From positions 310,001 to 374,000 of the forward strand of contig NZ_CP107904.1 in NCBI RefSeq assembly GCF_036013975.1: DNA of 64,000 nucleotides, read 5' to 3'. Positions 7,670-59,079 of this stretch are shown piece by piece. How positions within the stretch are numbered: position 1 is the first letter of the stretch; each line of letters starts with the position of its first letter. The notes under the pieces were generated by a model. The model saw nothing but the letters and a program-made list of their open reading frames with translations, was not told the origin of the DNA and made no database searches. The DNA comes from Kitasatospora sp. NBC_00458 (GTDB lineage Bacteria; Actinomycetota; Actinomycetes; Streptomycetales; Streptomycetaceae). A program made the position numbers and the translations under genes.

Positions 7670-8440
7670 GTGCTCGGTGAGACCGCCCGTACCTGGCTGC
7701 GGCGATGGGACCGGCAGCAGGAGCGCTACAGCCCCGACCGGGACGAACGCTTCGAGGTGGTCGTCGACACCGTCGGCTGGCTGCTCGAAGGGCGCGACGC
7801 ACCCCGGCCCCGCCTGGTGGACCTGGGCTGCGGCACCGGATCGCTCACCACCCGTCTCGCCCGCGCCTTCCCGCGCGCCGAGGTGGTCGGCGTGGACGCC
7901 GATCCGCTCCTCCTGGGCCTCGCCGAGGAGGCCGTCGCCGGCACGGGCACCCGGCTCCTCGCCCGGGACCTCACCGCGCCCGGGTGGGCCGACGAGATCG
8001 GGCCGCCCGCCTCCTGGGACGCGGTGGTGTCCTCCACCGCCCTCCACTGGCTGACCCCCGACGAGCTCGGCGCGCTGTACCGCACCCTGGCCGGCCGCCT
8101 GCGGCCCGGCGGGATCCTGGTCGACGCCGACAACCGGCCGCCCACCGACGTCCCCGCGCTCCTCGAACTCACCCGCCATCTGCGCGCGCGGCGGGCCCAC
8201 CGGACAGGGCGCCGCGGCCGCGAGGACTGGGACGGCTGGTGGAAGTCGGTCCTGTCCGCGCCGGAGCTCGCGCCCCTCGCCGAGGCCCGTGCCCGCTCGC
8301 CGATCGCGTCCCGCACCTTCACCGAGCCCCACGATCTGACGACCGCCGAGCAGGTCCGCCTCCTCCGCGAGGCCGGTTTCACGCACGCCTGCACCGTCTG
8401 GCAGTGCGGGGACGACGGCGTCCTGGTCGCCGTCCGCTGA
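7670..8440 (+). CDS. Class I SAM-dependent methyltransferase
   Basis: The product is 256 aa. Motif I is LVDLGCGTGSLTTRLA (about residues 49-64), followed by VVGVDADPLLLGLA (acidic ribose-binding Asp), ARDLTAPGW and VVSSTALHWLTPDEL, an arrangement close to the trans-aconitate/ubiquinone-type small-molecule methyltransferases. GTG at 7670 is preceded by GGAAGAGG. The substrate cannot be told. The open frame that continues upstream to 6830 is not supported by codon bias. A perfect hairpin at 8624-8653 ends transcription from both sides. Confidence 0.85.
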   Translation: MLGETARTWLRRWDRQQERYSPDRDERFEVVVDTVGWLLEGRDAPRPRLVDLGCGTGSLTTRLARAFPRAEVVGVDADPLLLGLAEEAVAGTGTRLLARDLTAPGWADEIGPPASWDAVVSSTALHWLTPDELGALYRTLAGRLRPGGILVDADNRPPTDVPALLELTRHLRARRAHRTGRRGREDWDGWWKSVLSAPELAPLAEARARSPIASRTFTEPHDLTTAEQVRLLREAGFTHACTVWQCGDDGVLVAVR

Positions 8441-29259: not shown

Positions 29260-31056
29260 CTACTGCGCCGGGGCGGCCGGGTCGGCCTGGTCGGGGAGTC
29301 CGCCGAGGGTGTCGGCGAGGGCGCGCAGGTCGGCGGGCCGGACGGACGGGCCCATCGCGGCGAGCCGGAACGGGGAGAGCCCGCCGAGCATCGCCCGCAG
29401 GCCGGGGTTGGCCAGCATCGGCAGCCGCTCCAGGACGGCGGCGGCGGCCCGTTCGTCCTCCAGCAGGGTGCGCAGCGGGGTGTGCACGGAGAGCGGTGCG
29501 TCGGGGAAGTCGCCCGCCTCGGGGAGGGGTTCGGCGGCGGCGAGCGCCTGCGGCTGCTGGGCGCGGACCTGGAGGTGCCCGGCGGTGACCGGGCCCTCGG
29601 CGGGCAGGCCCAGCCGTTCGAACTGGTCGGCCGGGGCGTCGGCGTCGCGCAGTGCCTGGGTGAGCAGCGCGGCCAGCTGCAGCTCCAGCTCGTCGTCGAC
29701 CAGGGGGTGTTCCTGGTCGGGGTCGGCGTAGAGGTCGAACAGCAGGGTTCCGAAGGCGTACGGGTTGCCCCAGGAGTTCGCGGGCAGGCGCAGGACGGGC
29801 ATGCCCTTGGTGAAGGGCAGCGGTCCGGCGAGGGTCGCGGGGGCCAGCTCCTGCGGGGTGAAGTGGCCGCGCATGTGGGTGGGCATCAGGGTGTGCTCGT
29901 ACAGCGGCCGGTTGCCGGCGTCCTTGCAGGCGCGCATGTAGACGTAGCGGCCGTCGGTGATGTTGACGTGCCCGCCGAAGACGCCGAACAGGCCGTGCAG
30001 CCGGACGGGGGTGTCGTGGGCGACGGTGTCGGCGAGCGCGCGGCCCTGCATGTCGGGGGTGCGCGGGACGCCGAAGTACTCCAGCAGGGTGGGCCCGAGG
30101 TCGATGGTCTGGACGAGGGCGGCGCGGCGGCCGGTGGCGCGGGTGCGCGGGTCCCAGACGAACAGCGGGGTGTGGATGTTCTCGTCGTACCAGGGCTGGA
30201 TGTTCTTGCCCCACCAGCCGCGCTCGCCGAGCAGGAGGCCGTGGTCGGTGCAGACGATCAGCAGGGTGTCGTCCCAGAGGCCGTGCTCGTCGAAGGCGTC
30301 GAGGACCCTGCCGAGCGAGTCGTCGCACATGGTGAGCAGCGCGGCGTACTCGTTGCGGGCGTGCTCGACGGCTTCGGGGCTCTCGGTGACGCGCTTGTAG
30401 TCGGGCCAGTCGAAGTGCGGGCCGTCCCAGTCGTGCGGGTAGTGCTTCTTGTGCTCGGCGTAGGAGTAGAACGGCTCGTGCGGGTCGAAGCACTCGATCT
30501 GCAGGAACCAGCGGTCCTGGTCGCGGTTGGTGGCGATGAACTCCAGGCCGGCGTCGAAGGTGCGGGTCTGCGGGTGGTCGGCGATGTCCTGCAGGTACTG
30601 GCGGTTGACCCAGTCCTGGCGCCAGGCCGGGCCGTCGCGCCAGGAGAGCGTCTCGGGGATGTCCGGGTCGGCGACGTGCCCCTTCCACTTGTCGCCCTCC
30701 TGGCCGCGGAAGAACTCGTAGCTGTCGTAGCGGTTGTGGTAGGTGGCGCCGCCGTCCTCCCAGTAGTGCTGGTGGTCGGTGACCAGGTGGGTGTAGACGC
30801 CGGCCTTGCCGAGCAGGTCGGGGACGGAGTCGTCGAAGGGCTCCAGCGGGCCCCAGGAGCGGTGCAGGAAGTTGTACCGGCCGGTGTGCATCTCGCGACG
30901 GGCCGGCATGCAGGGCATCGAGCCGCCGTAGCAGTTGTCGAAGGTGGCGGAGCGGGCGGCGAGGCGGCTGAAGTTCGGGGCCAGGGTCCAGTCGCAGCCG
31001 TAGGGCGGCAGGAAGCGGCGGTTGAGGCTGTCGAACATGACCAGGACGGCTTTCAC
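29260..31056 (-). CDS. Cysteine-type sulfatase
   Basis: The product is 598 aa. It is a type I sulfatase of the alkaline-phosphatase fold. MPCMPARREMHTGRY carries the C-x-P-x-R motif whose Cys is converted to formylglycine. Metal ligands are suggested by VMFDSLN near the start and CTDHGLLLGERGWWGKN. There is no signal peptide, so it is probably cytoplasmic. The C-terminal 130 residues are Ala/Leu/Pro-rich helices. GTG 31056 overlaps the PadR stop in a GTGA junction, so translation is coupled. The activating enzyme is encoded just across the PadR gene. Substrate not deducible. Confidence 0.92.
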   Translation of the reverse strand: MKAVLVMFDSLNRRFLPPYGCDWTLAPNFSRLAARSATFDNCYGGSMPCMPARREMHTGRYNFLHRSWGPLEPFDDSVPDLLGKAGVYTHLVTDHQHYWEDGGATYHNRYDSYEFFRGQEGDKWKGHVADPDIPETLSWRDGPAWRQDWVNRQYLQDIADHPQTRTFDAGLEFIATNRDQDRWFLQIECFDPHEPFYSYAEHKKHYPHDWDGPHFDWPDYKRVTESPEAVEHARNEYAALLTMCDDSLGRVLDAFDEHGLWDDTLLIVCTDHGLLLGERGWWGKNIQPWYDENIHTPLFVWDPRTRATGRRAALVQTIDLGPTLLEYFGVPRTPDMQGRALADTVAHDTPVRLHGLFGVFGGHVNITDGRYVYMRACKDAGNRPLYEHTLMPTHMRGHFTPQELAPATLAGPLPFTKGMPVLRLPANSWGNPYAFGTLLFDLYADPDQEHPLVDDELELQLAALLTQALRDADAPADQFERLGLPAEGPVTAGHLQVRAQQPQALAAAEPLPEAGDFPDAPLSVHTPLRTLLEDERAAAAVLERLPMLANPGLRAMLGGLSPFRLAAMGPSVRPADLRALADTLGGLPDQADPAAPAQ

Positions 31057-31846: not shown

Positions 31847-32809
31847 ATGAGTCAACCCCCCGCCGGACGCGCCTGCTGCCTGCCGTCGGCCCGGGGCGCC
31901 GACGCGCCCGCCCTCCCGCTCCCCGCCGCGCCGTCCACCGCGCGGCCCGCACACCCCGAATCATCCCTTCCCGGAGGCGTGTTCGCGATGGGGGACGCCC
32001 ACGGCGAGGGCTACCCCGCCGACGGCGAGACGCCGGTGCACGAGGTGGAACTGTCACCGTTCACCATCGACTCCGAGCCCGTCACCACCGCCCGGTTCGC
32101 CGCCTTCGCCGAGGCCACCGGCTACCGCACCGACGCCGAGCGGGCCGGATCCTCCGCCGTCTTCCACCTGTTCGCCCTCGCCGATCCCGCCGACGTGCTC
32201 GGCCGCTCCCCCGCCGCGCCCTGGTGGCTGGAGGTCCGCGGCGCCGACTGGCGCCACCCGTACGGCCCGCTCGGGGACGCCGCCGACCTGCTCGACCACC
32301 CCGTGGTGCACGTCAGCCACCGCGACGCGCTCGCCTACTGCCGCTGGGCCGGCCGCCGACTGCCCACCGAGGCCGAGTGGGAGTACGCCGCCCGCGGCCC
32401 GCTGGCCGGCCGCCGCTACCCGTGGGGCGACGAGCTGCGACCCGGCGGCGAGCACCACTGCCGGATCTGGCAGGGCCGGTTCCCCGACCTGCCGACCGGC
32501 GAGGACGGCTGGTACGCGACCGCGCCGGTCGGCAGCTACCCGCCCAACGGCTTCGGCCTGTCCGACGCGGCCGGCAACGTCTGGGAGTGGTGCGCCGACC
32601 GCTTCGACCCCGGCTGGTACGCGCGCTCGCCGCGCCGCGACCCGCGCGGGCCGGAGTCCTGCCCGGACGGCACCGGGCGCCGGGTGCTGCGCGGCGGCTC
32701 CTACCTGTGCCACGACTCGTACTGCAACCGCTACCGGGTCGCCGCGCGCACCGGCAACACCCCGGAGTCGACCAGCGGCAACTGCGGCTTCCGGACGGTG
32801 GCCTGCTGA
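31847..32809 (+). CDS. Formylglycine-generating enzyme (sulfatase-activating)
   Basis: The product is 320 aa. It oxidises the Cys of C-x-P-x-R in sulfatases to C-alpha-formylglycine using copper and oxygen. Visible features are PGGVFAMGDAHGEGYPADGETPVHEV (the family start), YCRWAGRRLPTEAEWEYAARGPL, AGNVWEWCADRF and the catalytic pair in GGSYLCHDSYCNRYRV, matching the two active-site Cys of the S. coelicolor enzyme, then RTGNTPESTSGNCGFR. It is divergent from the PadR-sulfatase pair and is the natural maturation partner of that sulfatase. Confidence 0.96.
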   Translation: MSQPPAGRACCLPSARGADAPALPLPAAPSTARPAHPESSLPGGVFAMGDAHGEGYPADGETPVHEVELSPFTIDSEPVTTARFAAFAEATGYRTDAERAGSSAVFHLFALADPADVLGRSPAAPWWLEVRGADWRHPYGPLGDAADLLDHPVVHVSHRDALAYCRWAGRRLPTEAEWEYAARGPLAGRRYPWGDELRPGGEHHCRIWQGRFPDLPTGEDGWYATAPVGSYPPNGFGLSDAAGNVWEWCADRFDPGWYARSPRRDPRGPESCPDGTGRRVLRGGSYLCHDSYCNRYRVAARTGNTPESTSGNCGFRTVAC

Positions 32810-34895: not shown

Positions 34896-35693
34896 GTGCC
34901 GCGATCTCCCGGAGGGCTTGAGACCCTCGACCCCACGCGACAACGGCAGTTCTCGGAATCCGGCTACCTGGTCCTCCCCGGCTTCCTGCCGGAACCCCTC
35001 CGGGCGAGACTCGTGCCCGAGGTGGACCACTGGGTGGACGAGGGCCTGCGCGCCCGTTCCATCGCCGCGTGCGCCGCCCCGGAGGCCGGCGGTCCGCCCC
35101 CGGTCCTGGAGCTGGAGCTGGCGGCCCACGGCGAACTCCTCACCCACCCACCGCTCCTGCGGACCCTCACGCAGCTCATGGGGCCGTCGTTCGTCTTCCA
35201 CCACCTGCACAGCGACCGCCACGCCCCCGGCATCGCGGGCAAACCGTGGCACCACGACTGCGAGCCCAACGACCGGGGCGACCCGGCCCTGCGGATGATC
35301 CACGCGCTGCACTACCTCGGCGGCCTCGACGAGAAGGTCGGGAGCCTCGCGATCCTGCCCGGCTCCCACCGCCGCTCCGCCGACAAGACCGCGCTCGCCC
35401 ACCTCGGCACCGGCGAAGTGCCCGGTGAGACGGTCATCGACCGGCTGCCGGCCGGTTCGACCGTGCTCCTCGACTCCGCCCTCTTCCACACCCGCAGACC
35501 GGCCCCCGACGGCCCCGGCGGTCCCCGGTACTTCATCGACGCGTCCTACTGCCAGACGGGTGCACGGTGGCGTCCGGTGAAGCCCTACTGGAGACACATG
35601 CTGGCCAGGGCCCGCGAACTGGGCCTCTCCGACAGCCGGTGGCCGGAGCTGTTCGCGGAACGGCACTTCACCGAGTACACCGGAACCGTCTGA
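34896..35693 (+). CDS. PhyH-type Fe(II)/2-oxoglutarate dioxygenase
   Basis: The product is 265 aa. It belongs to the phytanoyl-CoA dioxygenase fold: FSESGYLVLPGFLPEPL at the start, metal ligands in KPWHHDCEPND (H-x-D) and LLDSALFHTRRP (distal His), and a 2-oxoglutarate Arg in the TRRP or following segment. Such enzymes hydroxylate amino acids or tethered intermediates. GTG 34896 is taken because AAGGAGGT lies 11 nt upstream; a TTG at 34824 is possible. It is the first gene of the NRPS cluster, 11 bp before the next gene. Confidence 0.85.
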   Translation: MPRSPGGLETLDPTRQRQFSESGYLVLPGFLPEPLRARLVPEVDHWVDEGLRARSIAACAAPEAGGPPPVLELELAAHGELLTHPPLLRTLTQLMGPSFVFHHLHSDRHAPGIAGKPWHHDCEPNDRGDPALRMIHALHYLGGLDEKVGSLAILPGSHRRSADKTALAHLGTGEVPGETVIDRLPAGSTVLLDSALFHTRRPAPDGPGGPRYFIDASYCQTGARWRPVKPYWRHMLARARELGLSDSRWPELFAERHFTEYTGTV

Positions 35694-35704
35694 GGAGAAC
35701 CGCC

Positions 35705-36292
35705 GTGGAGATCGTCACCGCCGTCGCCTTCGCCGAGGTCGTCGACGCCTACCGGCGCGACCACCCGGCGGAACGCACCCACGAGGCGAACAGCAACCAG
35801 GCCGGGGAGGAGAACCTCGACCGGGCCGACCGGACCGCCGACGACTGGCGGCGGGTGCGGCTCTCCCGGGCGGACGTCCTCGGCGTGGTCCTGCCCTGGC
35901 ACCTCAGCGAGGGCGGTGCGATCGAACTCGTCCCCCGGAGCGGACTGACGGTGGAGGAGGCGGTCGAGCGCGTCCGCGCGGGCGGGGCCGCGTGGGCGAA
36001 CGCGAACCCCGTCTGCGCGGCGAAGCTCAGACTCCTGAGATGGGCACCGTTCACACCCGTCTACCTCAGCACCGATCCGGTCGACCACTCCGACTACACG
36101 GACCTCCGAGTCCGGGAGGGACTGATCCACCTGGACGGCCTGCACCGCATGATCGCCTGGGAACTGGCCGGACGGCTCCCCGCCCGGGCCCGGCTCGACG
36201 GGTACCTCGCGGGCGATCCACGGGCCGCCCACACCGCCCGGGTGGACGCACGGCCCACCCGGGCGGCACGGAAGGGGGACGAGCGGGCGTGA
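35705..36292 (+). CDS. Unknown protein of the NRPS cluster, ParB-like signature
   Basis: The product is 195 aa. GTG 35705 follows GAGGAG. I do not recognise a function. The C-terminal half has LIHLDGLHRMIAWELAGRL, close to the D-G-x-H-R signature of ParB-like nuclease/CTPase folds, and the middle has LPWHLSEGGAIELVPRSGLTVEEAVERV. I recall similar Streptomyces proteins being filed under a DUF, perhaps DUF6309, but cannot confirm. Its stop overlaps the NRPS start in a GTGA junction, so it is produced in step with the NRPS and may be a chaperone or tailoring enzyme. Confidence 0.7.
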   Translation: MEIVTAVAFAEVVDAYRRDHPAERTHEANSNQAGEENLDRADRTADDWRRVRLSRADVLGVVLPWHLSEGGAIELVPRSGLTVEEAVERVRAGGAAWANANPVCAAKLRLLRWAPFTPVYLSTDPVDHSDYTDLRVREGLIHLDGLHRMIAWELAGRLPARARLDGYLAGDPRAAHTARVDARPTRAARKGDERA

Positions 36293-39200
36293 CCTCCGCG
36301 ACACGGCACGTCGGATCGACGCGGTCCACCGGGACCCTGCCCGGGCTGCTGTCGCGCATCGCCCGCCTCCACCCGCACCGGCCCGCCCTGGCGGACGGCG
36401 TCCGCGCGTTCGACTACCGGACGCTCGACGCCGTGACGGACCGGATCGCGGCCCGTCTGGGCCGGGCCGGAGTCGGCCGCGGCGACCGGGTGGCCCTGAT
36501 CGGCCCCAGGGACGCCCGGATGCTCGCGCTGCTGCACGGCGTCCTGCGCTCGGGAGCCGCCGCGGTGATGGCCGACCCCCAGTGGTCCGCGCCCGACCTG
36601 CGCCGACGCCTCGACTCCGTCCGGGTCCGCCGGGCACTCACCACGGAGGCCCCGGTCCGCGGCCCGGGCGGCTGTCCCACCGAGTCGGTGGACGTCGACG
36701 CGCTGGCCGCCCACGGCCACCGGCCGCAGCGCACGGACCGTCCGCACCGCACGGACCGGCCGCACCGCACGGGCACCGTCGGCGCGAGCGGGGACCTGGC
36801 CTACCTCTCCTTCACCTCGGGTTCGAGCGGCGAGCCCAAGGCCGTGGCCGTCACCCACGCCAACGGCGTCCACTACGCCCGGGCACTGGCGGACCGGCTG
36901 CGGTTCACCGAGGCCGACGCCCCGCGGATCGCGCACGTCACCACGCTCGCCGCCGACCTCGGCCACACCGCCTGGCTGCTCGCGCTCGCGACCGGAGGAT
37001 CGGTCCAGGTCGTGCCGGACGACGAGTCACGCGACCCGGACGCCTTCTGGGCGACCCTGAGCGGCGCCGGGGTGTCGGTGCTGAAGACGACGCCCTCCCA
37101 CCTCACCGCGCTCCTGGAGGCCCGGGCGGTCACCGGCCGGCCGGCCGTACCCGCGCTGCACACCGTGCTCCTGGGCGGGGAGGCGCTGCCGCGCGCGCTC
37201 GCCGCCGACCTGCTCGACACGGGCGTCGCCGCCCGCGTGGTCAACCACTACGGCCCGACGGAGACCACCGTCGGCGCCACCTGCTTCCTCGCCACGACGA
37301 CCGACCAACTGCCCCCGGACGAAGCCGCCGTCCCGATCGGCACGGCGATCGGCGAGGTGGTGCTCACGGTGGTCGACGGCGACGGGCGTCCGGCGGCCGA
37401 CGGCGCCGTCGGGGAACTGCTGATCGGCGGCAAGGGGGTCACCGCCGGATACTTCGGCAGGCCCGCCGAGACCGCGCGCGGCTTCGCCCGGCACGACGGC
37501 CGGCTGATGTACCGGACGGGCGACCTGTGCCGGCGGCGACCGGACGGGAACCTCGTCTTCCTCGGCCGGTCGGACCGCCAGGTCAAGATCAGGGGATTCC
37601 GGGTCGACCTCGCGGAGGTCGAACGGGCCGTCGAGGGGTTCCCGGGGGTCCGCCGCTCGTCGGTCCTCGTCCGCGACACCGCCGTGGGCGGCCAGCTGCT
37701 CGCCGCGATCACCCTGGCCGACGGCGCCGCCCCGCACGGCGTGGCCGACCGGCTCGGCGCCCACCTGCGCGACCGGCTGCCCGGGTACTCCGTCCCGCAG
37801 CCGATCCTGGTGCTGCCGGACTTCCCCGTCGGCCCCAACGGGAAGCTCGACCGGGAGCGGCTCGGCGCCCTGGTGACCGAGGCCGTCGAGGCACGGGCCG
37901 CCGGCCCGCGAGCCCCGGCCGACGCGCGGCCCGGCGCCGTCGACGGCCGGCTCGGCGCGGTCGACGGCCGGCTCGGCGCGGTCGACGGGCGGCTCGGCGC
38001 GGTGACCCGGTCGATCACCGACTTCTGGGCGAGTGCGCTGGGCCTGCCCCTCGTCGGGCCGCACGCCGACGTGCTGAGCCTCGGCGGCGACTCGATCCTC
38101 GCCATGCGTACCATCGCGCTCCTGCGCAGGTCGGGCCTGTACGTCAGGCCCGACGAGTTCTACCGCCACCCCACCGCCACCGGGCTGGCCTCGGCCGCCA
38201 CCCCCGCGCGCGCCGCCGCGACGGCCCCCGCCGCCGGCCCCGGCCGGGGCGACGACAGGGCGCTGCCGCTCGCGCCGGCCCAGCGGTGGCTGTTCCGGCA
38301 GCCCGTCGAGGACCCGCGCCACTGGAACCAGTCCGTCCTCCTGCGGTGCCGGGCGACGGTCGACCCGCCGACCCTGTCGGCCGCCGTCGCGGCCGTCCTG
38401 GCACGGCACCCGGCGCTGCGCCGGCCCGTCTCCCCGGACGGCTACGGCGACGCCCGGCCGGTGCCCGACCTCGACCCGGTGTCGTTCTCGCGGCTGCCCG
38501 GACCGGCCGGCCCCGTCGCACGGACCGTGACCGAGGTCTGCACCGAGCTCCAGCGCAGCCTGGACCCGGCCGCCGGGCGGCTGGTCCGCTTCCACCTGTT
38601 CTGCGGTCCGCCCGGCACCGACGACCGGTTGGCCCTGATCGCCCACCACCTGGTCGTCGACGGCCTCTCCTGGCGCGTCCTGCTGGACGACCTCGCCCAC
38701 ACCTACCGGGCGGTGCTCGACAACAAGCCGGCCGACCTCCCGCCGACCGCGGACTTCTACCAGTGGGCGGCGACGGCGCCACCGGCTCCCGCGCCCGAGC
38801 CCGCCACCGGGCACGCCGCGGATCCCGCCACCGGGGCCGCCTCGACGGCCGTGGCCGCAGCCGTGCCCCGGCCGCGGGCGGAGGCAGCGGCGACGGCCCG
38901 GACGGACGCAGGGACGGACGCAGGCGCGGCGGCGGGCCCGGACGCGCGCACCAAGGCCACCGGACGGACCCCCGCACCGGACCCGGCCGCCATCAGCTGG
39001 ACGCTCGACGAGAGCGGCACCGCGGCGCTCATCGGCCGCCACGGCGCCGGTCCGGGCCTCGAAGCCTTCCTGCTGTCGGCGTTCGCCGACGCCGTGTCCG
39101 GCTGGACCGGCCGCCCCCGGCTCGCGGTCGAAGTCGAGACCCACGGCCGCGACGGCACCGCCGACACCGGTGAACACCTCGACACCGTCGGCTGGTTCAC

Positions 39201-40860
39201 CGCCGTCAAACGACTCCAGCTCGAAGCCCCCGACGGACGGGCGGACTCCGCCGGCACCCGGGTACGGGAGGTCGGACGCCGCCTTGCGGAGTCTCCGGTG
39301 CTGCCGATGGACACGGCGGGAGTCCGCCCGGACACCGGCTTCAACTTCCTGGGCACCTTCCACCTGCCCGACGAACCCGCACTGGACTGGACCGTCGCGG
39401 ACGAGCAGCCCGGTACCGCCCGCTGCGCCGGCGGCGATCCCCTGTACGCCCTGCGCCTCACCACCCGCATCGTCGAGAAGCGGCTGGTCGCCGACCTCGT
39501 CTACGCGCCGCCCGGACCGGCGCACCGGGCGGCGGAACGCATCGTCGCCTCCTTCGCCCGTACGGTGGCGGCGGCGGCCGGGACCACCGCGGCCGCACCG
39601 GTCCGGCCCCCGCTGTCCACCTCCGGCCACCTGCTCCACCGCGGCGGCCCCGCGCCCGCGGTCGGCACCACGGTCGGCCCCGCAGGCGGCACCACGGTCG
39701 GCCCCGCAGGCGGCACCGCGGTCGGCACCGCGGTCGGCCGCCTCACGGTGGCCGAACCCGCCCGGGTGCTGCTCACCGGCGCCACCGGCTACCTGGGCGG
39801 CCACCTGCTCACCGAACTCCTCCGGCGCGGCGCCCACGTCACCTGCCTGGTACGCGCGGAGGGCGACCTCGACGCGGCCCGTCGGCTCGACCGGGTCCGG
39901 CGGACCGGCGCCCGCCACGACCGGATCGAGGCCGTCGCCGGTGACATCGACCGCGAGGGGCTCGGCCTGTCCCGGGCCGGGCTCTCCCTGGCCCGAACCG
40001 CCCGGACCGTCCTGCACGCCGCGGCGGACGTCCGCCTGGTGGCCTCGCCCGCCGAGCTGGAACGGACCAACCACACCGCGGTCCGCCGACTGCTCGCCTG
40101 GATCGACGAGCACACCCCCACGGCCCGGTTCCACCACATCTCGACGCTCGCCGTCGCGGGGGGCGTCGACGGAGCCGCCCGCAGGTTCAGCGAGGCCGAC
40201 CTGCGGATCGGCCAGCGCTTCCGCACCCCCTACGAACAGGCGAAGTTCCGCGCCGAGGAGGCCGTCCGCGCCTGGGCGGCGACGGGCCGCCCGTACTTCA
40301 TCCACCGCAGCGGGCACATCGCGGCGCACAGCCTGACCGGGGCCTTCCAGCCGAACGTCGGGGACAACCGGATCTACCAGCTCATCCACGGCTACCTGCT
40401 GGCCGGCGCGGCGCCCCGGCGTCCGGCCGCCGGCTTCGCGTTCTCCCACGTCGACACCGTGGCCGCCGGGATCGCCGCGATCGCCGCCAACCCCTACGCC
40501 GCACCCGGCACCTACCACGTCGAGACCCCGTACGAGACGCCGCACGACGAGCTCGTCCGGTGGCTCGCCGCCCACGGCCACCCGGTCGTGCTCACCGGCG
40601 ACGAGGAGTTCGCCGCCGCGATCGCCCGGGCCGAACGGAGCCACCCGACCGAGGCCGGACTGGCCGCGGCGTGGTCCCTCCAGGACGAGCGCAACGTCGT
40701 CGTCGACCGCTCCTACACGACGTCCGTGCTCGACCGGCTGGGCGTCCGGTTCACCGCTCCGACCCGGCAGTGGTGGTCCACGGCGCTCTCCTGGGCGGCC
40801 GAGGCCGGATACCTCCCGCCCGCCGGCGCCCCGACCGCACGCCCCGACCGCACGACCTGA
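36289..40860 (+). CDS. Single-module NRPS, domains A-T-E-R, predicted Asp-specific
   Basis: The product is 1523 aa. A domain (about 20-530): LSFTSGSSGEPKAVAV, NHYGPTETT, RTGDL, RQVKIRGFRV, GPNGKLDR. Lining the ten specificity positions by eye gives D-L-T-K-L-G-H-V-G-K, the aspartate pattern. T domain (about 575-640) has the LGGDSIL arm site. Then comes an epimerisation domain (about 655-1105), with HWNQS, AHHLVVDGLSWRVLL, VEVETHGRD, TVGWFT and FNFLGTF. A C-terminal thioester reductase (about 1155-1520) has LLTGATGYLGGHLL and PYEQAK (YxxxK). There is no condensation domain, so no peptide bond is made here. Expected product: an Asp-derived amino aldehyde or alcohol, probably D-configured. Repeated heptads DGRLGAV and GTTVGPAG-type units form the linkers. 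Confidence 0.92.
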   Translation: MTSATRHVGSTRSTGTLPGLLSRIARLHPHRPALADGVRAFDYRTLDAVTDRIAARLGRAGVGRGDRVALIGPRDARMLALLHGVLRSGAAAVMADPQWSAPDLRRRLDSVRVRRALTTEAPVRGPGGCPTESVDVDALAAHGHRPQRTDRPHRTDRPHRTGTVGASGDLAYLSFTSGSSGEPKAVAVTHANGVHYARALADRLRFTEADAPRIAHVTTLAADLGHTAWLLALATGGSVQVVPDDESRDPDAFWATLSGAGVSVLKTTPSHLTALLEARAVTGRPAVPALHTVLLGGEALPRALAADLLDTGVAARVVNHYGPTETTVGATCFLATTTDQLPPDEAAVPIGTAIGEVVLTVVDGDGRPAADGAVGELLIGGKGVTAGYFGRPAETARGFARHDGRLMYRTGDLCRRRPDGNLVFLGRSDRQVKIRGFRVDLAEVERAVEGFPGVRRSSVLVRDTAVGGQLLAAITLADGAAPHGVADRLGAHLRDRLPGYSVPQPILVLPDFPVGPNGKLDRERLGALVTEAVEARAAGPRAPADARPGAVDGRLGAVDGRLGAVDGRLGAVTRSITDFWASALGLPLVGPHADVLSLGGDSILAMRTIALLRRSGLYVRPDEFYRHPTATGLASAATPARAAATAPAAGPGRGDDRALPLAPAQRWLFRQPVEDPRHWNQSVLLRCRATVDPPTLSAAVAAVLARHPALRRPVSPDGYGDARPVPDLDPVSFSRLPGPAGPVARTVTEVCTELQRSLDPAAGRLVRFHLFCGPPGTDDRLALIAHHLVVDGLSWRVLLDDLAHTYRAVLDNKPADLPPTADFYQWAATAPPAPAPEPATGHAADPATGAASTAVAAAVPRPRAEAAATARTDAGTDAGAAAGPDARTKATGRTPAPDPAAISWTLDESGTAALIGRHGAGPGLEAFLLSAFADAVSGWTGRPRLAVEVETHGRDGTADTGEHLDTVGWFTAVKRLQLEAPDGRADSAGTRVREVGRRLAESPVLPMDTAGVRPDTGFNFLGTFHLPDEPALDWTVADEQPGTARCAGGDPLYALRLTTRIVEKRLVADLVYAPPGPAHRAAERIVASFARTVAAAAGTTAAAPVRPPLSTSGHLLHRGGPAPAVGTTVGPAGGTTVGPAGGTAVGTAVGRLTVAEPARVLLTGATGYLGGHLLTELLRRGAHVTCLVRAEGDLDAARRLDRVRRTGARHDRIEAVAGDIDREGLGLSRAGLSLARTARTVLHAAADVRLVASPAELERTNHTAVRRLLAWIDEHTPTARFHHISTLAVAGGVDGAARRFSEADLRIGQRFRTPYEQAKFRAEEAVRAWAATGRPYFIHRSGHIAAHSLTGAFQPNVGDNRIYQLIHGYLLAGAAPRRPAAGFAFSHVDTVAAGIAAIAANPYAAPGTYHVETPYETPHDELVRWLAAHGHPVVLTGDEEFAAAIARAERSHPTEAGLAAAWSLQDERNVVVDRSYTTSVLDRLGVRFTAPTRQWWSTALSWAAEAGYLPPAGAPTARPDRTT
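37942..38001. repeat. 21-bp tandem repeat in the A-T linker
   Basis: The unit encodes DGRLGAV and is repeated about three times between the adenylation and carrier domains. It keeps frame and sets linker length. Confidence 0.8.
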
Positions 40861-40892
40861 CCACCGCGACCGACCACACGACCGAACCACCG

Positions 40893-40932
40893 CACCGCCG
40901 CACCGCCGCACCGCCGCACCGCCGCACCGCCG
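40893..40932. repeat. 8-bp tandem repeat, five perfect copies
   Basis: CACCGCCG is repeated five times in the 172-bp spacer between the NRPS and the aminotransferase. Eight is not a multiple of three, so it is non-coding and slippage-prone. Confidence 0.85.
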
Positions 40933-41032
40933 CGAGTGAACGCAGCACCGCGCGACCGCACCACAGCGACCGATCGCACGGCCCGACACCGCGACCGACC
41001 GCCGCCGCATCCGCCGACAGAAGGCAGGCTCC

Positions 41033-42301
41033 GTGTCCCGACTCTCCCCGGTGCTCAAGCAGGCCACCCCCGTCGTCGCCACCCGCGGCGAGGGGATCCA
41101 CCTCTTCGACGCCGACGGCCGACGCTACCTCGACTTCACCTCCGGCGTGGGGGTGACCGGCACCGGCCACTGCCACCCGCGCGTGGTCGAGGCGGTGCGC
41201 GACCAGGCCGGCAGGCTGCTGCACGGCCAGTACACCACCGTGCTGCACCACCCCCTGCTCGCCCTGACCGAACGGCTGGGCGAGGTGCTCCCGCCCGGCC
41301 TCGACTCGCTGTTCTACGCCACCGCCGGCACCGAGGCCGTCGAGGCCGCACTGCGGCTCGCCCGGCACGCCACCGGCCGGCAGAACGTGGTCGTCTTCGA
41401 GGGCTCCTTCCACGGGCGCACCATGGGCGCGGCCGCCCTCACCACCGCCGGTACGCGCTTCCGCGCCGGCATCGGCCCGGTGATGCCGGGCGTCGCCGTG
41501 GCCCCGTTCCCGTCCGCCTTCCGGCTCGGGCTGAGCGAGGAGGACGCGGTCGAGTACGCCCTGCGCGGGCTGGACCGGGTCCTGGCCACCGTCAGCGCAC
41601 CCGCCGAGACCGCCGCGATGTTCGTCGAGCCGGTACTCGGAGAGGGCGGCTACGTACCGGCGCCGCCCGGCTTCCTGGCCGGGCTGCGGGACCGCGCGGA
41701 CCGGCACGGGATCCTCCTGGTCGTCGACGAGATCCAGACCGGCTTCGGACGGACCGGCAGGTTCTGGGCCCACCAGCACGACGCCGGGACCGTGCCGGAC
41801 GTCCTGATCACGGCCAAGGGGCTGGCCAGCGGTCTGCCGCTCTCAGCGATCGCCGCGCCCGCCGCGCTGATGCAGCGGGCCTGGCCGGGTTCGCAGGGCG
41901 GCACCTACGGCGGGAACCCGTTGGCCTGCGCCGCCGCGCTGGCGACGCTCGACGTCATCCGGGACGAACGGCTCGTCGAGAACGCCGCCGACCAGGGAGC
42001 GCGACTGCTCGACGGGCTCCGCGCGGTCGCGTCCGGCACCCCTGCCGTCGCCGACGTCCGGGGCCTCGGGCTGATGGCGGGCAGCGAGTTCCGTCACCCG
42101 GACGGCGCCCCGGACCCGGACACCGCCCGGCGCGCCCAGCAGGCGGCGGCCGAGCTCGGCCTGCTGCTGCTCACCTGCGGCATCGACCTGAACGTGGTCA
42201 GGATGGTCCCGCCGCTGATCGTCACGGCGGAGCAGGTCGACGAGGCACTGGCGGTCTGGTCGAAGGCCCTCGCCGTCGCCACGGACACGACGACCCGCTA
42301 G
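41033..42301 (+). CDS. Class III PLP aminotransferase of the NRPS cluster
   Basis: The product is 422 aa. It aligns with the 4-aminobutyrate/acetylornithine/diaminobutyrate aminotransferase group: YLDFTSGVGVTGTGHCHPRVVEA, FYATAGTEAVEAALRLAR, FEGSFHGRTMGA, VVDEIQTGFGRTG (Asp that binds the PLP ring) and ITAKGLASGLPLSA with the PLP Lys, then GGTYGGNPLACAAALA. In this setting the likely substrate is the aldehyde released by the NRPS reductase domain, giving a primary amine. GTG 41033 has GGCAGG upstream. Confidence 0.92.
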   Translation: MSRLSPVLKQATPVVATRGEGIHLFDADGRRYLDFTSGVGVTGTGHCHPRVVEAVRDQAGRLLHGQYTTVLHHPLLALTERLGEVLPPGLDSLFYATAGTEAVEAALRLARHATGRQNVVVFEGSFHGRTMGAAALTTAGTRFRAGIGPVMPGVAVAPFPSAFRLGLSEEDAVEYALRGLDRVLATVSAPAETAAMFVEPVLGEGGYVPAPPGFLAGLRDRADRHGILLVVDEIQTGFGRTGRFWAHQHDAGTVPDVLITAKGLASGLPLSAIAAPAALMQRAWPGSQGGTYGGNPLACAAALATLDVIRDERLVENAADQGARLLDGLRAVASGTPAVADVRGLGLMAGSEFRHPDGAPDPDTARRAQQAAAELGLLLLTCGIDLNVVRMVPPLIVTAEQVDEALAVWSKALAVATDTTTR

Positions 42302-42430
42302 GGCGTGCTCGCGGGGTCGCGCCGGACCGGGCCGCGGCGCCGGGCGCGCGGCCTGGCGCGCGGCCTGGCGGGCGACCGGCCGGGGACGGACGCCCCGCGT
42401 CGCGGGCCAGGCGTGGCCCCGCACACGCGT

Positions 42431-42480
42431 CCCGGAACAGCCCGAGACAGACCGGAACAGACCGGAACAGACCGCCACAG
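42431..42480. repeat. 10-bp near-perfect repeat, five units
   Basis: Units related to ACCGGAACAG follow each other with exact 10-bp period (two are identical) in the 247-bp gap before the TauD-type gene. One unit per helical turn could place repeated protein sites on one face of the DNA. Confidence 0.7.
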
Positions 42481-42548
42481 GCCCGGCGAAGGTCCGGTGA
42501 GGACAACCGAGAACGGCCGAGGACAACGACGAAGGGAGTGGTCGCCCC

Positions 42549-43409
42549 ATGCCGGACGACACCGTGCAGGAGATCGGCTGGAGCAGTGCGGGCCTGGCCG
42601 CACGGCGCGACACCTGGTCGCTCGCCCTCGGCGAGGACGACCGACGGCTGCTCCAGGCGGACGCGGGGGCCGGGCGGTGGGACCGGGCCGAACCGGTCCG
42701 CGCCAGGCTCCGCGCGTTCGTGCGGAGCAGCACCCGGTCCGCGGGTCTCACGCACATCGGCGGACTGCTGGACCCGACGGCACCGCTGGACGAGCTGGTG
42801 GCGGCGCTGTCGTTCACACTCGGCGACTTCGGCGAGATCGTCCCCCAGAACGGGCAGGGCGACCTGACCCAGGTGCTCCGCGACCAGGACGGCGACGGGA
42901 ACACCGAACTGGGGTTCCACTGCGACACCTGCGACCTGCTCGTCCTGTTCTGCCTGCAACCCGCGGCGAGGGGCGGGGGGCTCACCAAGCTGGCGAGCGC
43001 GCGCCACGTCCGCGACATCATCGCGCGGGAGCGGCCCGACGCCCTCGCCACCCTCGGCGAGGACTGGACCTTCAACCGGACCGGCCGGGCGGGCCCGCAG
43101 GTGATCGTCTCCCCGATCCTCTTCACCCAGAAGGACGGGACCGTCGGCTGCTACTACCAGACCCGCACCGTGCGGTCCTCCCCCGAGCGGGGAGGACCGC
43201 CCCTGACGGAGCGCCAGTGGGAGGCCCTCGACGTGCTCGACGAGGTGCTCTACCGCCCCGAGATCGCCTTCGGCCTGCCGATGGCCGCCTCCGACCTGCT
43301 GATCATCCGCAACAGCCGTGTCCTGCACGGCCGTTCCCCCTACGTCGACGAGCCCGGACCGCGCTCCCGCCGCATGCTGCGGATCTGGATGAACACGGAG
43401 GACCTGTGA
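42549..43409 (+). CDS. TauD/TfdA-type Fe(II)/2-oxoglutarate dioxygenase
   Basis: The product is 286 aa. The metal ligands are in LGFHCDTCDLLVLFCLQP (H-x-D) and RNSRVLHGRSPYVD (distal His), with the 2-oxoglutarate Arg in RRMLRIWM. This matches the TauD/clavaminate-synthase type oxygenases, which hydroxylate, desaturate or cyclise amino acid derivatives. GAAGGGAG precedes the ATG. Its stop overlaps the SDR start in a GTGA junction. Confidence 0.9.
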   Translation: MPDDTVQEIGWSSAGLAARRDTWSLALGEDDRRLLQADAGAGRWDRAEPVRARLRAFVRSSTRSAGLTHIGGLLDPTAPLDELVAALSFTLGDFGEIVPQNGQGDLTQVLRDQDGDGNTELGFHCDTCDLLVLFCLQPAARGGGLTKLASARHVRDIIARERPDALATLGEDWTFNRTGRAGPQVIVSPILFTQKDGTVGCYYQTRTVRSSPERGGPPLTERQWEALDVLDEVLYRPEIAFGLPMAASDLLIIRNSRVLHGRSPYVDEPGPRSRRMLRIWMNTEDL

Positions 43410-44221
43410 CCGACCCCACCCCCACCGACGCCGCCACCCCCACCGCCGCCCCCGGAACAGCCCCCGCGGAGCAGCCCGGCCGGATCGCCCTCGTCACCGG
43501 TGGCGGCAGCGGCATCGGCAGGGCCAGCGCGCTCGCCCTGCTCGGCGCCGGCTGGTCGGTCGCCGTCGCCGGGCGGCGCAAGGACGCCCTGGAGGAGACC
43601 GTCGCCCTGGCCGGCGTCGAACCGTCCCGCGTGCTGGCCGTGCCGGCCGACGTCAGGGACGCCGCTCAGGTCGCCGAGCTCTTCGGGGCCGTCCGCCGCC
43701 GGTTCGGCCGGGTGGACCTGCTGTTCAACAACGCGGGAGCGGCCGCGCCGCGCCGGCCGATCGCGGACACGCCCGTCGAGGACTGGAACCTGGTGATGGA
43801 CACCATCGTGACCGGCGGCTTCCTCTGCGCGAGGGAGGCGTTCCGGGTGATGGGCTCCCAGTCCCCGGCCGGCGGACGCATCATCAACAACGGTGCGCCG
43901 TCCGCCCACGTGCCCCGGCCGAACTCCGTCGCCTACACGGCCGCCAAGCACGCCCTCCTCGGTCTGACCCGGGTGCTGTCGCTGGACGGCCGCCGGCACG
44001 GCATCGCCGTCGGGCAGATCGACGTGGGCAACGTGGCTCCGCCCGACGGCCGCCCGCAGCCGGCGGCCATGCAGGCCGACGGATCGCTGGCGGTGGAGGC
44101 GACCATCCCGGTGGAGCGCTTCACCGAGGCGCTGCTGCTGATGGCCTCGATGCCGCTGGACACCAACGTCCAGTCCCTGACCGTGCTGCCGACCACCATG
44201 CCGTTCGTCGGGCGCGGCTGA
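43406..44221 (+). CDS. Short-chain dehydrogenase/reductase of the NRPS cluster
   Basis: The product is 271 aa. After a 25-residue Pro/Thr/Ala-rich lead come RIALVTGGGSGIGRASALAL, AGRRKDALEE (NADP-type Arg), LFNNAGAAAPRRPI, IINNGAPSAHVPRPNSVAYTAAKHAL (Ser and Y-x3-K) and the usual end. GTG 43406 follows GGAGG. It probably reduces or oxidises a hydroxyl/keto group made by one of the two oxygenases. Confidence 0.9.
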   Translation: MTDPTPTDAATPTAAPGTAPAEQPGRIALVTGGGSGIGRASALALLGAGWSVAVAGRRKDALEETVALAGVEPSRVLAVPADVRDAAQVAELFGAVRRRFGRVDLLFNNAGAAAPRRPIADTPVEDWNLVMDTIVTGGFLCAREAFRVMGSQSPAGGRIINNGAPSAHVPRPNSVAYTAAKHALLGLTRVLSLDGRRHGIAVGQIDVGNVAPPDGRPQPAAMQADGSLAVEATIPVERFTEALLLMASMPLDTNVQSLTVLPTTMPFVGRG

Positions 44222-44224
44222 GCG

Positions 44225-45073
44225 ATGCTGGTCAGCGCCCGCTCCTTCGACGAGTACCGCGCCATGTTCGCGCTCACCGAGCACGACCTGCGGCTGGGGA
44301 TCCTGGACTGCCCGGGCGGCGCCGCCGGCTTCGTCGCCGAAGCCGGACGGCGCGGCACCGACGCCGTGGCCGTCGACCCCGCCTACGCCGACGACCGGGA
44401 GGACCTCGGCGCGCTGGTCCTGCGCGAGATCCGCCACAAGCACGCGGCCCTGGTGCGGGACGCCTCCGAGTACGTCTGGACCCGGCTCGGCGGCCCCGAG
44501 CGCCTCACCCGGCTGCGCAGCCGGGCCGCCCGCGCCTTCGCCGCCGACATCGCCGCCCGCCCGGACCGCTACGTCGCCGGCTCGCTTCCCCGGCTGCCCT
44601 TCCCCGACCGGTCGTTCGACCTCGTGCTCGGCTCCCACCTGCTGTTCTCCTACGGGGCGCGGCTCGACGAGGACTTCCACCTGGCCTCCCTGCTCGACCT
44701 GGCGCGGGTCTCCCGGTGGCAGGTGCGGCTGTTCCCGGTCCTGCTGCACACCAGCAACGTCCGGTACGGCCCGCTGGACCGCGTCAGGTCCGCACTGGCC
44801 GAGCACGGCGTCCCGAGCCGGCTGGAGCGGGTCGGCTACGAGTTCCAGCCCGGCGGGGACGAGATGCTCGTGCTCTCGACCGCGGGCTACCGGCCGCCCG
44901 CCGCCGCGGCGCCACCCGTGCGCGACCCCGCGGCCGGGGCGCTCGACCCGGTGCGCTGGCGGCACCGGGAGGCGCCCGACGGCCGTGCGGGCCCGGCCCA
45001 GGCCCCGGATCCGGTCGGGGATCCGGGTCCCGGTCCGGGCCACCGGGGCGCCACCGGCCGGAGCGGTGCCTAG
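44225..45073 (+). CDS. Methyltransferase-like Rossmann protein, last gene of the NRPS cluster
   Basis: The product is 282 aa. GILDCPGGAAGFVAEAGRRGTDAVAVDPAY resembles SAM motif I and the following acidic strand, and LPFPDRSFDLVLGSHLLFSYGARLDEDFHLASLLDLARV is the typical motif IV-V region of class I methyltransferases. The Pro in place of a motif-I Gly and an unusual helical insert (about 55-110) make methylation activity uncertain. The last 50 residues are Pro/Gly/Ala-rich. It starts 3 bp after the SDR stop and ends in a 4-bp tail overlap with a convergent gene. Confidence 0.75.
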   Translation: MLVSARSFDEYRAMFALTEHDLRLGILDCPGGAAGFVAEAGRRGTDAVAVDPAYADDREDLGALVLREIRHKHAALVRDASEYVWTRLGGPERLTRLRSRAARAFAADIAARPDRYVAGSLPRLPFPDRSFDLVLGSHLLFSYGARLDEDFHLASLLDLARVSRWQVRLFPVLLHTSNVRYGPLDRVRSALAEHGVPSRLERVGYEFQPGGDEMLVLSTAGYRPPAAAAPPVRDPAAGALDPVRWRHREAPDGRAGPAQAPDPVGDPGPGPGHRGATGRSGA

Positions 45074-58824: not shown

Positions 58825-59079
58825 GGCGGCGGGCCTCCGGGGGTGGGTGCCGGGCAGGGTCTCGGGCACGGCGCCGAACCGGGCGGGCGCGGCGCCGACC
58901 GTCCGCGTGCAGAGTACAACCGTCGGCCCGGGGACGGCCGGGGCGTCCGAGCGGTGGACACCGGTCACCTTCCGCACGCCCCTGTTGCAGAGCGGCAGTT
59001 GGCAGGAGGATCGGGGAACCGCGCGGGCCGGCCGAGCCGTCCCGCGAGGCAGGATCCGCACGGTGGAGGGGGCGTGGTC

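What the first reader, a model, noticed from the sequence alone, without database searches (positions are those of the whole stretch)
34896..45073. Compact NRPS cluster predicted to turn aspartate into a vicinal diamine
Seen: PhyH oxygenase, unknown protein, NRPS with order A-T-E-R and no condensation domain, class III aminotransferase, TauD oxygenase, SDR and methyltransferase-like gene, most with 4-bp overlaps or tiny gaps. Known: the A-domain pattern DLTK(V/L)GH(I/V)GK is an aspartate code, E domains invert the alpha carbon, R domains release aldehydes, and class III aminotransferases aminate aldehydes. Inference: L-Asp is loaded, epimerised, released as 3-amino-4-oxobutanoate, and converted to a 3,4-diaminobutanoate that is then oxidised twice. 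I know of no described pathway with this gene set.
Basis: partly seen in the sequence, partly recalled or inferred. Interest (0 to 1): 0.87.

Follow-up and report, generated by a model that had tools for sequence, protein, structure and literature searches.

The report
Diamine-making gene cluster with swappable start
A small soil-bacterium gene cluster probably turns aspartate into a molecule with two neighbouring amino groups and then oxidises it; related clusters replace the first step with two other enzyme sets that fit the same kind of product, which supports the guess, although the final product is unknown.

Summary
Window 34896-45073 holds PhyH, DUF6309, NRPS (A-T-E-R, code DLTKLGHVGK), class III aminotransferase (AT), TauD, SDR and a methyltransferase-like gene. 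Motifs checked in A, T, E and R are intact in 15 of 15 family NRPSs aligned.

(1) The AT is GABA-transaminase-like. Five of five genomes tested with it in the cluster lack another close copy; seven of seven NRPS clusters without it lie in genomes carrying a 66-73% homologue elsewhere, though that homologue is widespread. (2) In one congener SbnA and SbnB, both above NCBIfam cut-offs for 2,3-diaminopropionate synthesis, replace NRPS and AT in an otherwise homologous operon. (3) In 20 further loci a glutamate-1-semialdehyde-aminomutase-like enzyme accompanies PhyH and DUF6309 (SDR in 19). Each of 49 classified loci has exactly one module.

Best reading: L-Asp to (R)-3,4-diaminobutanoate, then oxidation. 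DUF6309 resembles, weakly, the ParB/sulfiredoxin/SerK fold and may be a kinase. Stereochemistry, oxidation, methylation and product remain inferred. Verdict: partly supported; new variant of a known kind.

The parts
34896..35693 (+). PhyH-type Fe(II)/2-oxoglutarate oxygenase (alternative TTG start 34824)
   Evidence: PF05721 21.4 bits (cut-off 22); distant to phytanoyl-CoA dioxygenase and ectoine hydroxylase in the PDB; HxD...H invariant in 10 of 10 rows
35705..36292 (+). DUF6309 protein, predicted ParB/sulfiredoxin/SerK-like fold, motif DGLHR
   Evidence: PF19828 3.9e-85; model pLDDT 77.8; weak fold matches; DGLHR in 18 of 18 aligned homologues
36289..40860 (+). NRPS, A-T-E-R
36355..37845 (+). 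adenylation domain, code DLTKLGHVGK (aspartate-type)
   Evidence: AMP-binding 1.2e-66; code read; the meaning of the code is recalled
38014..38193 (+). carrier (T) domain, GGDS serine present
   Evidence: PP-binding 6.4e-09
38263..39360 (+). epimerisation domain (HHLVVDGLSW, ETHGR, TVGWFT, FNFLG)
   Evidence: Condensation-superfamily match; motifs in 15 of 15 family rows
39766..40695 (+). thioester reductase (R) domain, TGATGYLG, S/T and YxxxK
   Evidence: TIGR01746 167.5 bits (cut-off 213.35); NAD_binding_4 1.6e-36
41033..42301 (+). class III aminotransferase, GABA-transaminase-like (alternative start 41051)
   Evidence: Aminotran_3 5.8e-119; closest PDB chains PuuE and GabT
42549..43409 (+). 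TauD-family Fe(II)/2-oxoglutarate oxygenase
   Evidence: TauD 1.1e-21; closest PDB chains 7n7v, FrbJ (5eqn), TmpA; HxD...H invariant in 14 of 14 rows
43406..44221 (+). short-chain dehydrogenase/reductase
   Evidence: adh_short 1.8e-42; closest PDB chains 4dyv, 4dry, 9x6i
44225..45073 (+). methyltransferase-like protein, conserved LDCPxGAAxF
   Evidence: no Pfam or NCBIfam hit; motif in 13 of 13 rows; low-confidence model whose best, weak matches are largely SAM-dependent transferases

Best explanation
The cluster makes a vicinal diamino acid from aspartate and then tailors it. The A domain activates L-Asp and loads it on T; E inverts the alpha carbon; R releases D-aspartate alpha-semialdehyde (3-amino-4-oxobutanoate, an amino analogue of succinate semialdehyde). 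The GABA-transaminase-like AT aminates it to (R)-3,4-diaminobutanoate. PhyH and TauD hydroxylate it, the SDR changes the oxidation state of a hydroxyl or carbonyl carbon, the methyltransferase-like protein methylates, and DUF6309 performs a nucleotide-dependent step, possibly phosphorylation. Shown: genes, domains, intact motifs, conservation, module swaps. Inferred: every reaction, all stereochemistry, the order of tailoring and the product.
For: Asp-type code and A, T, E and R motifs conserved in 15 of 15 family NRPSs aligned. AT closest to GABA transaminases, with Lys, Glu and both Arg positions aligned to E. coli GabT (roles recalled). AT presence is complementary: in-cluster AT and no other close copy in 5 of 5 genomes tested (G000, G395, G396, G397, G791); no in-cluster AT but a 66-73% homologue elsewhere in 7 of 7 (G121, G394, G384, G346, G267, G805, G1176). 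In four of those seven I read the locus: the homologue lies beside a gene that is SSADH-like in the one tested and 81-92% identical among the four. Module swap: L147 has PhyH-DUF6309-TauD-SDR followed by SbnA (365.2 bits, cut-off 349.95) and SbnB (394.3, cut-off 326.9) in place of NRPS and AT; its PhyH lies in a 28-row group (100/98) whose other 27 rows are NRPS-type, paired with L149 (99/95); that genome has no close AT copy. In 20 loci a GSAM-like enzyme takes this role. These fit 2,3-diaminopropionate, 3,4-diaminobutanoate and 4,5-diaminopentanoate, a homologous series (inference).
Against: No biochemistry. The SbnA/SbnB swap is seen once. The substrate of the GSAM-like enzymes is unknown; the three tested of 20 score below the hemL and GntE equivalog cut-offs. 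The AT complementarity is confounded with phylogeny: the genomic homologue occurs in 39 of 40 genomes of genus g35, whether or not they hold the cluster, so the only contrast within that family is G791, which itself has a 47% relative. L227 also lacks DUF6309 in the cluster, though its genome has a stand-alone copy. R could reduce to the alcohol. PhyH or TauD could act on carrier-bound Asp, so the free diamine may never be unsubstituted.
Confidence: 0.62

Rival explanations
1. Aminomutase route: the AT moves the amino group, turning 3-amino-4-oxobutanoate into 4-amino-3-oxobutanoate, and the SDR reduces the ketone to 4-amino-3-hydroxybutanoate, which is then tailored.
For: GSAM-like enzymes, related to an aminomutase, take the same role in 20 loci; an SDR was detected in 48 of the 49 classified loci.
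Against: The window AT is GABA-transaminase-like, not GSAM-like, and SbnA/SbnB in L147 would make a true diamine.
Confidence: 0.14
2. Amino-alcohol route: R reduces Asp by four electrons, or the SDR reduces the aldehyde, to 3-amino-4-hydroxybutanoate; the AT serves another step.
For: Some R domains make alcohols (recalled); 7 of 28 NRPS-type loci lack an AT in the cluster.
Against: All seven of those genomes have a close AT homologue elsewhere; the swapped modules fit diamines.
Confidence: 0.12
3. Hydroxylation first: TauD or PhyH beta-hydroxylates carrier-bound Asp, so the released compound is already a hydroxy amino aldehyde.
For: Asp beta-hydroxylation on carriers by TauD enzymes is known from siderophores (recalled).
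Against: PhyH and DUF6309 also occur in 20 loci with no NRPS beside them, and TauD occurs without an NRPS in L147, so a carrier need not be involved there.
Confidence: 0.08
4. The three upstream modules make unrelated compounds and the shared core acts on something else; the apparent swap is coincidental neighbourhood.
For: The SbnA/SbnB case is single; products are unknown; in type II loci the genes are partly divergent, not one operon.
Against: L147 is one compact operon (three 4-bp overlaps, one 19-bp overlap, one 31-bp gap), and exactly one module was found in each of 49 loci.
Confidence: 0.12

Closest known systems
SbnA/SbnB 2,3-diaminopropionate synthesis (staphyloferrin B)
   Same: Makes a vicinal diamino acid; SbnA and SbnB homologues themselves replace NRPS and AT in L147; the serine kinase SbnI of that pathway has the ParB-type fold (PMC12704722, passages) that DUF6309 appears to share.
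   Different: The window uses an NRPS reductase plus transaminase on Asp, not O-phosphoserine and glutamate (the latter recalled).
Glutamate-1-semialdehyde aminomutase (HemL) and GntE of guanitoxin
   Same: Class III PLP enzymes; relatives stand in for NRPS and AT in 20 loci. HemL passes through 4,5-diaminovalerate (recalled); GntE does a transamination (PMC10367076, one passage).
   Different: The window AT is of the GABA-transaminase type; the three type II enzymes tested fall below the hemL and GntE equivalog cut-offs.
NRPS with reductive release
   Same: Loads one amino acid and releases it reductively.
   Different: Asp-type code, E and R on one protein without a separate condensation domain, and a GABA-T-like AT alongside.
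FrbJ / TmpA oxygenases and ectoine hydroxylase
   Same: Distant relatives of TauD and PhyH here, acting on small amine or zwitterionic substrates (recalled).
   Different: Low similarity; the closest TauD structure, 7n7v, is only called 'predicted hydroxylase'.
Emeriamine / aminocarnitine (fungal)
   Same: Formally an N-methylated 3,4-diaminobutanoate (recalled).
   Different: No shared genes known to me; named only as a structural analogue.

Membership tests
NRPS with aspartate-specific A domain | Asp-type ten-residue code with His at position 322 | tested here: met
   DLTKLGHVGK in the window; eight of the ten positions unchanged in 15 of 15 family rows, 299 varying L/I/V and 330 V/I; code meaning recalled
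NRPS with aspartate-specific A domain | Asp activation in vitro | not testable with these tools
   needs an ATP-PPi exchange assay
NRPS epimerisation domain | HHxxxDG, E(G/T)HGR, TVGWFT and FN(Y/F)LG motifs | tested here: met
   15 of 15 family rows; the two rows of the second family have DA for DG, ESHGR and VVGWFT
Thioester reductase domain | NAD(P)-binding TGATG, Ser/Thr and YxxxK | tested here: met
   17 of 17 rows; TIGR01746 score below its cut-off
GABA transaminase (TIGR00700 equivalog) | score over the curated cut-off | tested here: not met
   365.3 bits against 506.65: GABA-T-like, not filed as a GabT
GABA transaminase-like class III AT | catalytic Lys, Glu switch and two carboxylate-binding Arg aligned to GabT | tested here: met
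   alignment with 1sf2; invariant in 9 of 9 rows; residue roles recalled
ParB/sulfiredoxin/SerK fold (DUF6309) | significant fold match | tested here: inconclusive
   best Foldseek E 0.57, none of 41 matches at E 0.001; 23 of 26 listed VIA-align rows titled ParB, Noc, KorB, sulfiredoxin, PadC or free serine kinase, best Z 4.3; no profile match to that fold
SbnI/SerK-type amino-acid kinase (DUF6309) | ATP- or ADP-dependent phosphorylation | not testable with these tools
   only the DGLHR motif and the weak fold match
SbnA and SbnB (in homologous locus L147) | score over NCBIfam equivalog cut-offs | tested here: met
   365.2 vs 349.95 and 394.3 vs 326.9
Glutamate-1-semialdehyde aminomutase (type II loci) | TIGR00713 hemL cut-off 527.3 | tested here: not met
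   381.9 (L134), 369.5 (L091), 378.2 (L145), three of 20 tested; the broader PRK00062 cut-off 398 is passed by L134 and L145, not L091
SAM-dependent methyltransferase (gene 7) | profile or fold match | tested here: inconclusive
   no profile hit; weak matches, E 0.19 at best, from a low-confidence model

The most novel reading that the evidence does not exclude
Actinomycetes hold a family of mini-pathways in which one tailoring core (a PhyH oxygenase, a ParB-fold DUF6309 enzyme and an SDR) is fed by three interchangeable modules that make a homologous series of terminal vicinal diamino acids: C3 from serine (SbnA/SbnB), C4 from aspartate (NRPS with reductive release plus transaminase) and C5 from glutamate semialdehyde (GSAM-like enzyme). 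This would be a new natural-product class, with thiotemplated synthesis of 3,4-diaminobutanoate and a new enzymatic use of the ParB/sulfiredoxin fold.
Probability: 0.4. Interest if true: 0.8.

Novelty: new variant of a known kind. Interest (0 to 1): 0.64.

Why it matters
If right, it gives an enzymatic route from a proteinogenic amino acid to a vicinal diamino acid by carrier-bound reduction and transamination, and shows nature swapping the entry module while keeping the tailoring enzymes. The swap gives a direct test: feed three simple diamino acids to the same oxygenases. It also suggests a biosynthetic role for DUF6309, a family that Pfam lists as of unknown function.

Tried and rejected
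Literature (open-access PMC library only): no paper holds the word DUF6309; searches for the gene set, for vicinal diamines with NRPS and for 3,4-diaminobutanoate-type compounds listed no matching pathway (listings and abstract starts seen; one search showed 20 of 97). One search (7N7V) found nothing, so the closest TauD structure stays unidentified. PMC12704722 was read by passages: SerK, SbnI and Srx share the ParB-CTPase fold; none of the passages shown mentions DUF6309. PMC5120207: abstract start in a listing, and a term search without hits. PMC10367076: one passage on GntE.

Rejected: that the AT is dispensable (its absence from the cluster coincides with a genomic homologue); that the genomic homologue is linked to the cluster (it is genus-wide, and sits near an SSADH-like gene and others I did not identify). 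TauD as a SyrP-type Asp hydroxylase was considered and not tested directly. Methylation as a constant step is not supported: the methyltransferase-like gene is in 24 of 28 NRPS-type loci, three of the other four (L150, L208, L210) have a different methyltransferase, but L148 and L147 have neither, and it was not detected in the 20 type II loci (the second methyltransferase was sought in 18 loci only, three of them type II).

Left out of the 49-locus count: L144 and L146 (PhyH without DUF6309), the distant or partial PhyH hits L141 and L142, contig-end loci L019, L156 and L161, decayed loci L151 and L220, the fragment L219, and stand-alone DUF6309 genes (L090, L092, L093, L094). Records of one genome seen twice were counted once, by equal contig length. 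The trees hold 49 (PhyH) and 46 (SDR) rows, L144 and L146 among the former; L207 and L227 were not given to them. PDB chain 2hwj (Atu1540) was not counted among the 23 fold rows; two rows are OTULIN (Gumby). Frame breaks make gene calls in L029 unreliable.
Full report
What is there. The window lies in an 8.01-Mb, single-contig actinomycete genome. Its genus is probably Kitasatospora: a same-genus genome (G458) holds the cluster on a contig of the same length (49985) as that of Kitasatospora aureofaciens ATCC 10762 (inference). Seven + strand genes run from 34896 to 45073: PhyH, DUF6309, NRPS A-T-E-R, class III aminotransferase (AT), TauD, SDR and a methyltransferase-like gene. Four of six junctions are tight (11 and 3 bp apart, and two 4-bp overlaps); gaps of 172 and 247 bp flank the AT. 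The A-domain code is DLTKLGHVGK, an Asp-type code (recalled). Fifteen family NRPSs and two of a second family were aligned: the A, T, E and R motifs checked are kept in all fifteen, with small variants in the second family.

Conservation. One scan of the species-genome collection with the NRPS (593 pattern matches, limit reached, best 80 kept) gave 13 orthologous loci, L010-L021 and L029. In the 14 loci compared, shared genes run from PhyH to the methyltransferase-like gene; beyond them, similarity was limited to a few closely related loci. The PhyH family is found in 28 of 394 genomes of the window's family and 5 of 150 of the family holding Nocardiopsis, each including one weak or partial hit (L141, L142). 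DUF6309 occurs in 18 of 70 genomes of the window's genus, 18 of 392 of the genus of G234 and 7 of 394 across the class, and in none of the 14 control genomes.

Module swapping. I classified neighbourhoods by tblastn and model scans. Forty-nine distinct loci were intact or nearly so: 21 with NRPS and AT, 7 with NRPS but no AT, 20 with a GSAM-like class III enzyme and no NRPS (type II), and 1 with SbnA and SbnB. L207 is partly degenerate, L218 lacks a detected SDR, L227 lacks DUF6309. Each has exactly one entry module. The loci were gathered with NRPS, PhyH, DUF6309 or TauD as bait, not with AT, GSAM-like or Sbn genes. In L147 the order is PhyH, DUF6309, TauD, SDR, SbnA, SbnB, with three 4-bp overlaps, one 19-bp overlap and one 31-bp gap. 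SbnA and SbnB exceed their NCBIfam equivalog cut-offs. In the PhyH tree L147 pairs with L149, an NRPS-and-AT locus (99/95), inside a 28-row group (100/98) otherwise made of NRPS-type loci; in the SDR tree it also falls in the NRPS-type group (100/100), on a long branch and with its exact place unsure. So within NRPS-type clusters NRPS and AT were exchanged for a diaminopropionate module, or the reverse. In L145 PhyH and DUF6309 form one 535-residue frame with both domains, which suggests that they work together.

The aminotransferase. The AT is closest to GABA transaminases, which fits 3-amino-4-oxobutanoate, an amino analogue of succinate semialdehyde. Its presence is complementary. Five of five genomes tested with an in-cluster AT have no second close copy; the next best is 47% identical or less. 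Seven of seven genomes whose NRPS cluster lacks the AT carry a homologue elsewhere at 66-73%, in one (G1176) in two pieces. G555, the SbnA/SbnB genome, has neither. In the four elsewhere loci read, a neighbouring gene is 81-92% identical among them; the one tested is best matched by succinate-semialdehyde dehydrogenase models, below their cut-offs. The control matters: that homologue is present in 39 of 40 genomes of genus g35, so it looks like a housekeeping gene and the pattern is partly phylogenetic. Nocardiopsis ansamitocini (G791, L016/L149) is the informative exception: same family, AT in the cluster, no 66-73% copy elsewhere. In-cluster and elsewhere copies fall into separate groups in a tree of 16 AT rows and two GSAM-like outgroup rows (L016 and L149 are one genome).

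DUF6309. The model has mean pLDDT 77.8. Foldseek's seven best PDB matches are sulfiredoxin, ParB-type or KorB proteins, but with E 0.57 or worse, and unrelated proteins follow. VIA-align gives Z 4.3 at best, with 23 of 26 rows titled as ParB, Noc, KorB, sulfiredoxin, PadC or free serine kinase. No profile match to that fold exists. The motif DGLHR is invariant in 18 of 18 sequences, four of them stand-alone copies. SerK, SbnI and Srx use this fold as a nucleotide-binding module in enzymes (PMC12704722, passages). A kinase role is a reasoned guess, no more.

Tailoring. TauD is distantly related to 7n7v, FrbJ and TmpA, PhyH to phytanoyl-CoA and ectoine hydroxylases. Iron ligands are invariant in the rows aligned. 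The methyltransferase-like protein has no profile hit and a poor model. It is found in 24 of 28 NRPS-type loci; in L150, L208 and L210 another methyltransferase, 72-79% identical to window 7670-8437, follows the SDR instead, but L148 and L147 have neither, so methylation is not a constant step.

Mechanism. Most likely: L-Asp is loaded, epimerised, released as 3-amino-4-oxobutanoate and aminated to (R)-3,4-diaminobutanoate, which PhyH, TauD and SDR then oxidise. By CIP rules D-Asp gives the R isomer (my reasoning). The three entry modules would give terminal vicinal diamino acids of 3, 4 and 5 carbons. Every reaction is inferred.

Novelty. The enzymes are of known families; the combination and the module exchange were not found in the library searched. 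New variant of a known kind.

Noticed in passing
L022-L026, around the NRPS: A second family of reductase-ending NRPS with the same Asp-type code (A-T-E-R in L022 and L023). In L022 it lies beside a WelO5-like oxygenase, an SDR, two ATP-grasp enzymes, an MFS transporter and an Asp/Asn hydroxylase-like gene; L025 and L026 have, by eye, an SDR and a relative of that oxygenase.
   Followed up: partly
L145 12758-14365: PhyH and DUF6309 lie in one open frame of 535 residues, an apparent fusion.
   Followed up: no
L144 6184-9737, L146 9852-12942: Close PhyH relatives without DUF6309, beside a polysaccharide deacetylase and an FAD lactone-oxidase-like gene.
   Followed up: partly
L090, L092, L093, L094: Stand-alone DUF6309 genes in Nocardiopsis relatives, outside any such cluster, with the DGLHR motif intact.
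   Followed up: partly
L151 10642-13992, L220 4099-5629: Decayed clusters: L151 lacks DUF6309 and NRPS and keeps an AT remnant; L220 keeps only DUF6309 and TauD.
   Followed up: no
L029: In Nocardiopsis eucommiae several genes of the cluster, NRPS and PhyH among them, are split by frame breaks, perhaps assembly errors.
   Followed up: no
window 59074-61353: A separate 759-residue protein with an adenylation domain.
   Followed up: no
window 29260-31056 (-) and 31979-32809 (+): A sulfatase close to a formylglycine-generating-enzyme-like gene.
   Followed up: no
window 7670-8440: A methyltransferase 72-79% identical to the one that follows the SDR in L150, L208 and L210.
   Followed up: partly
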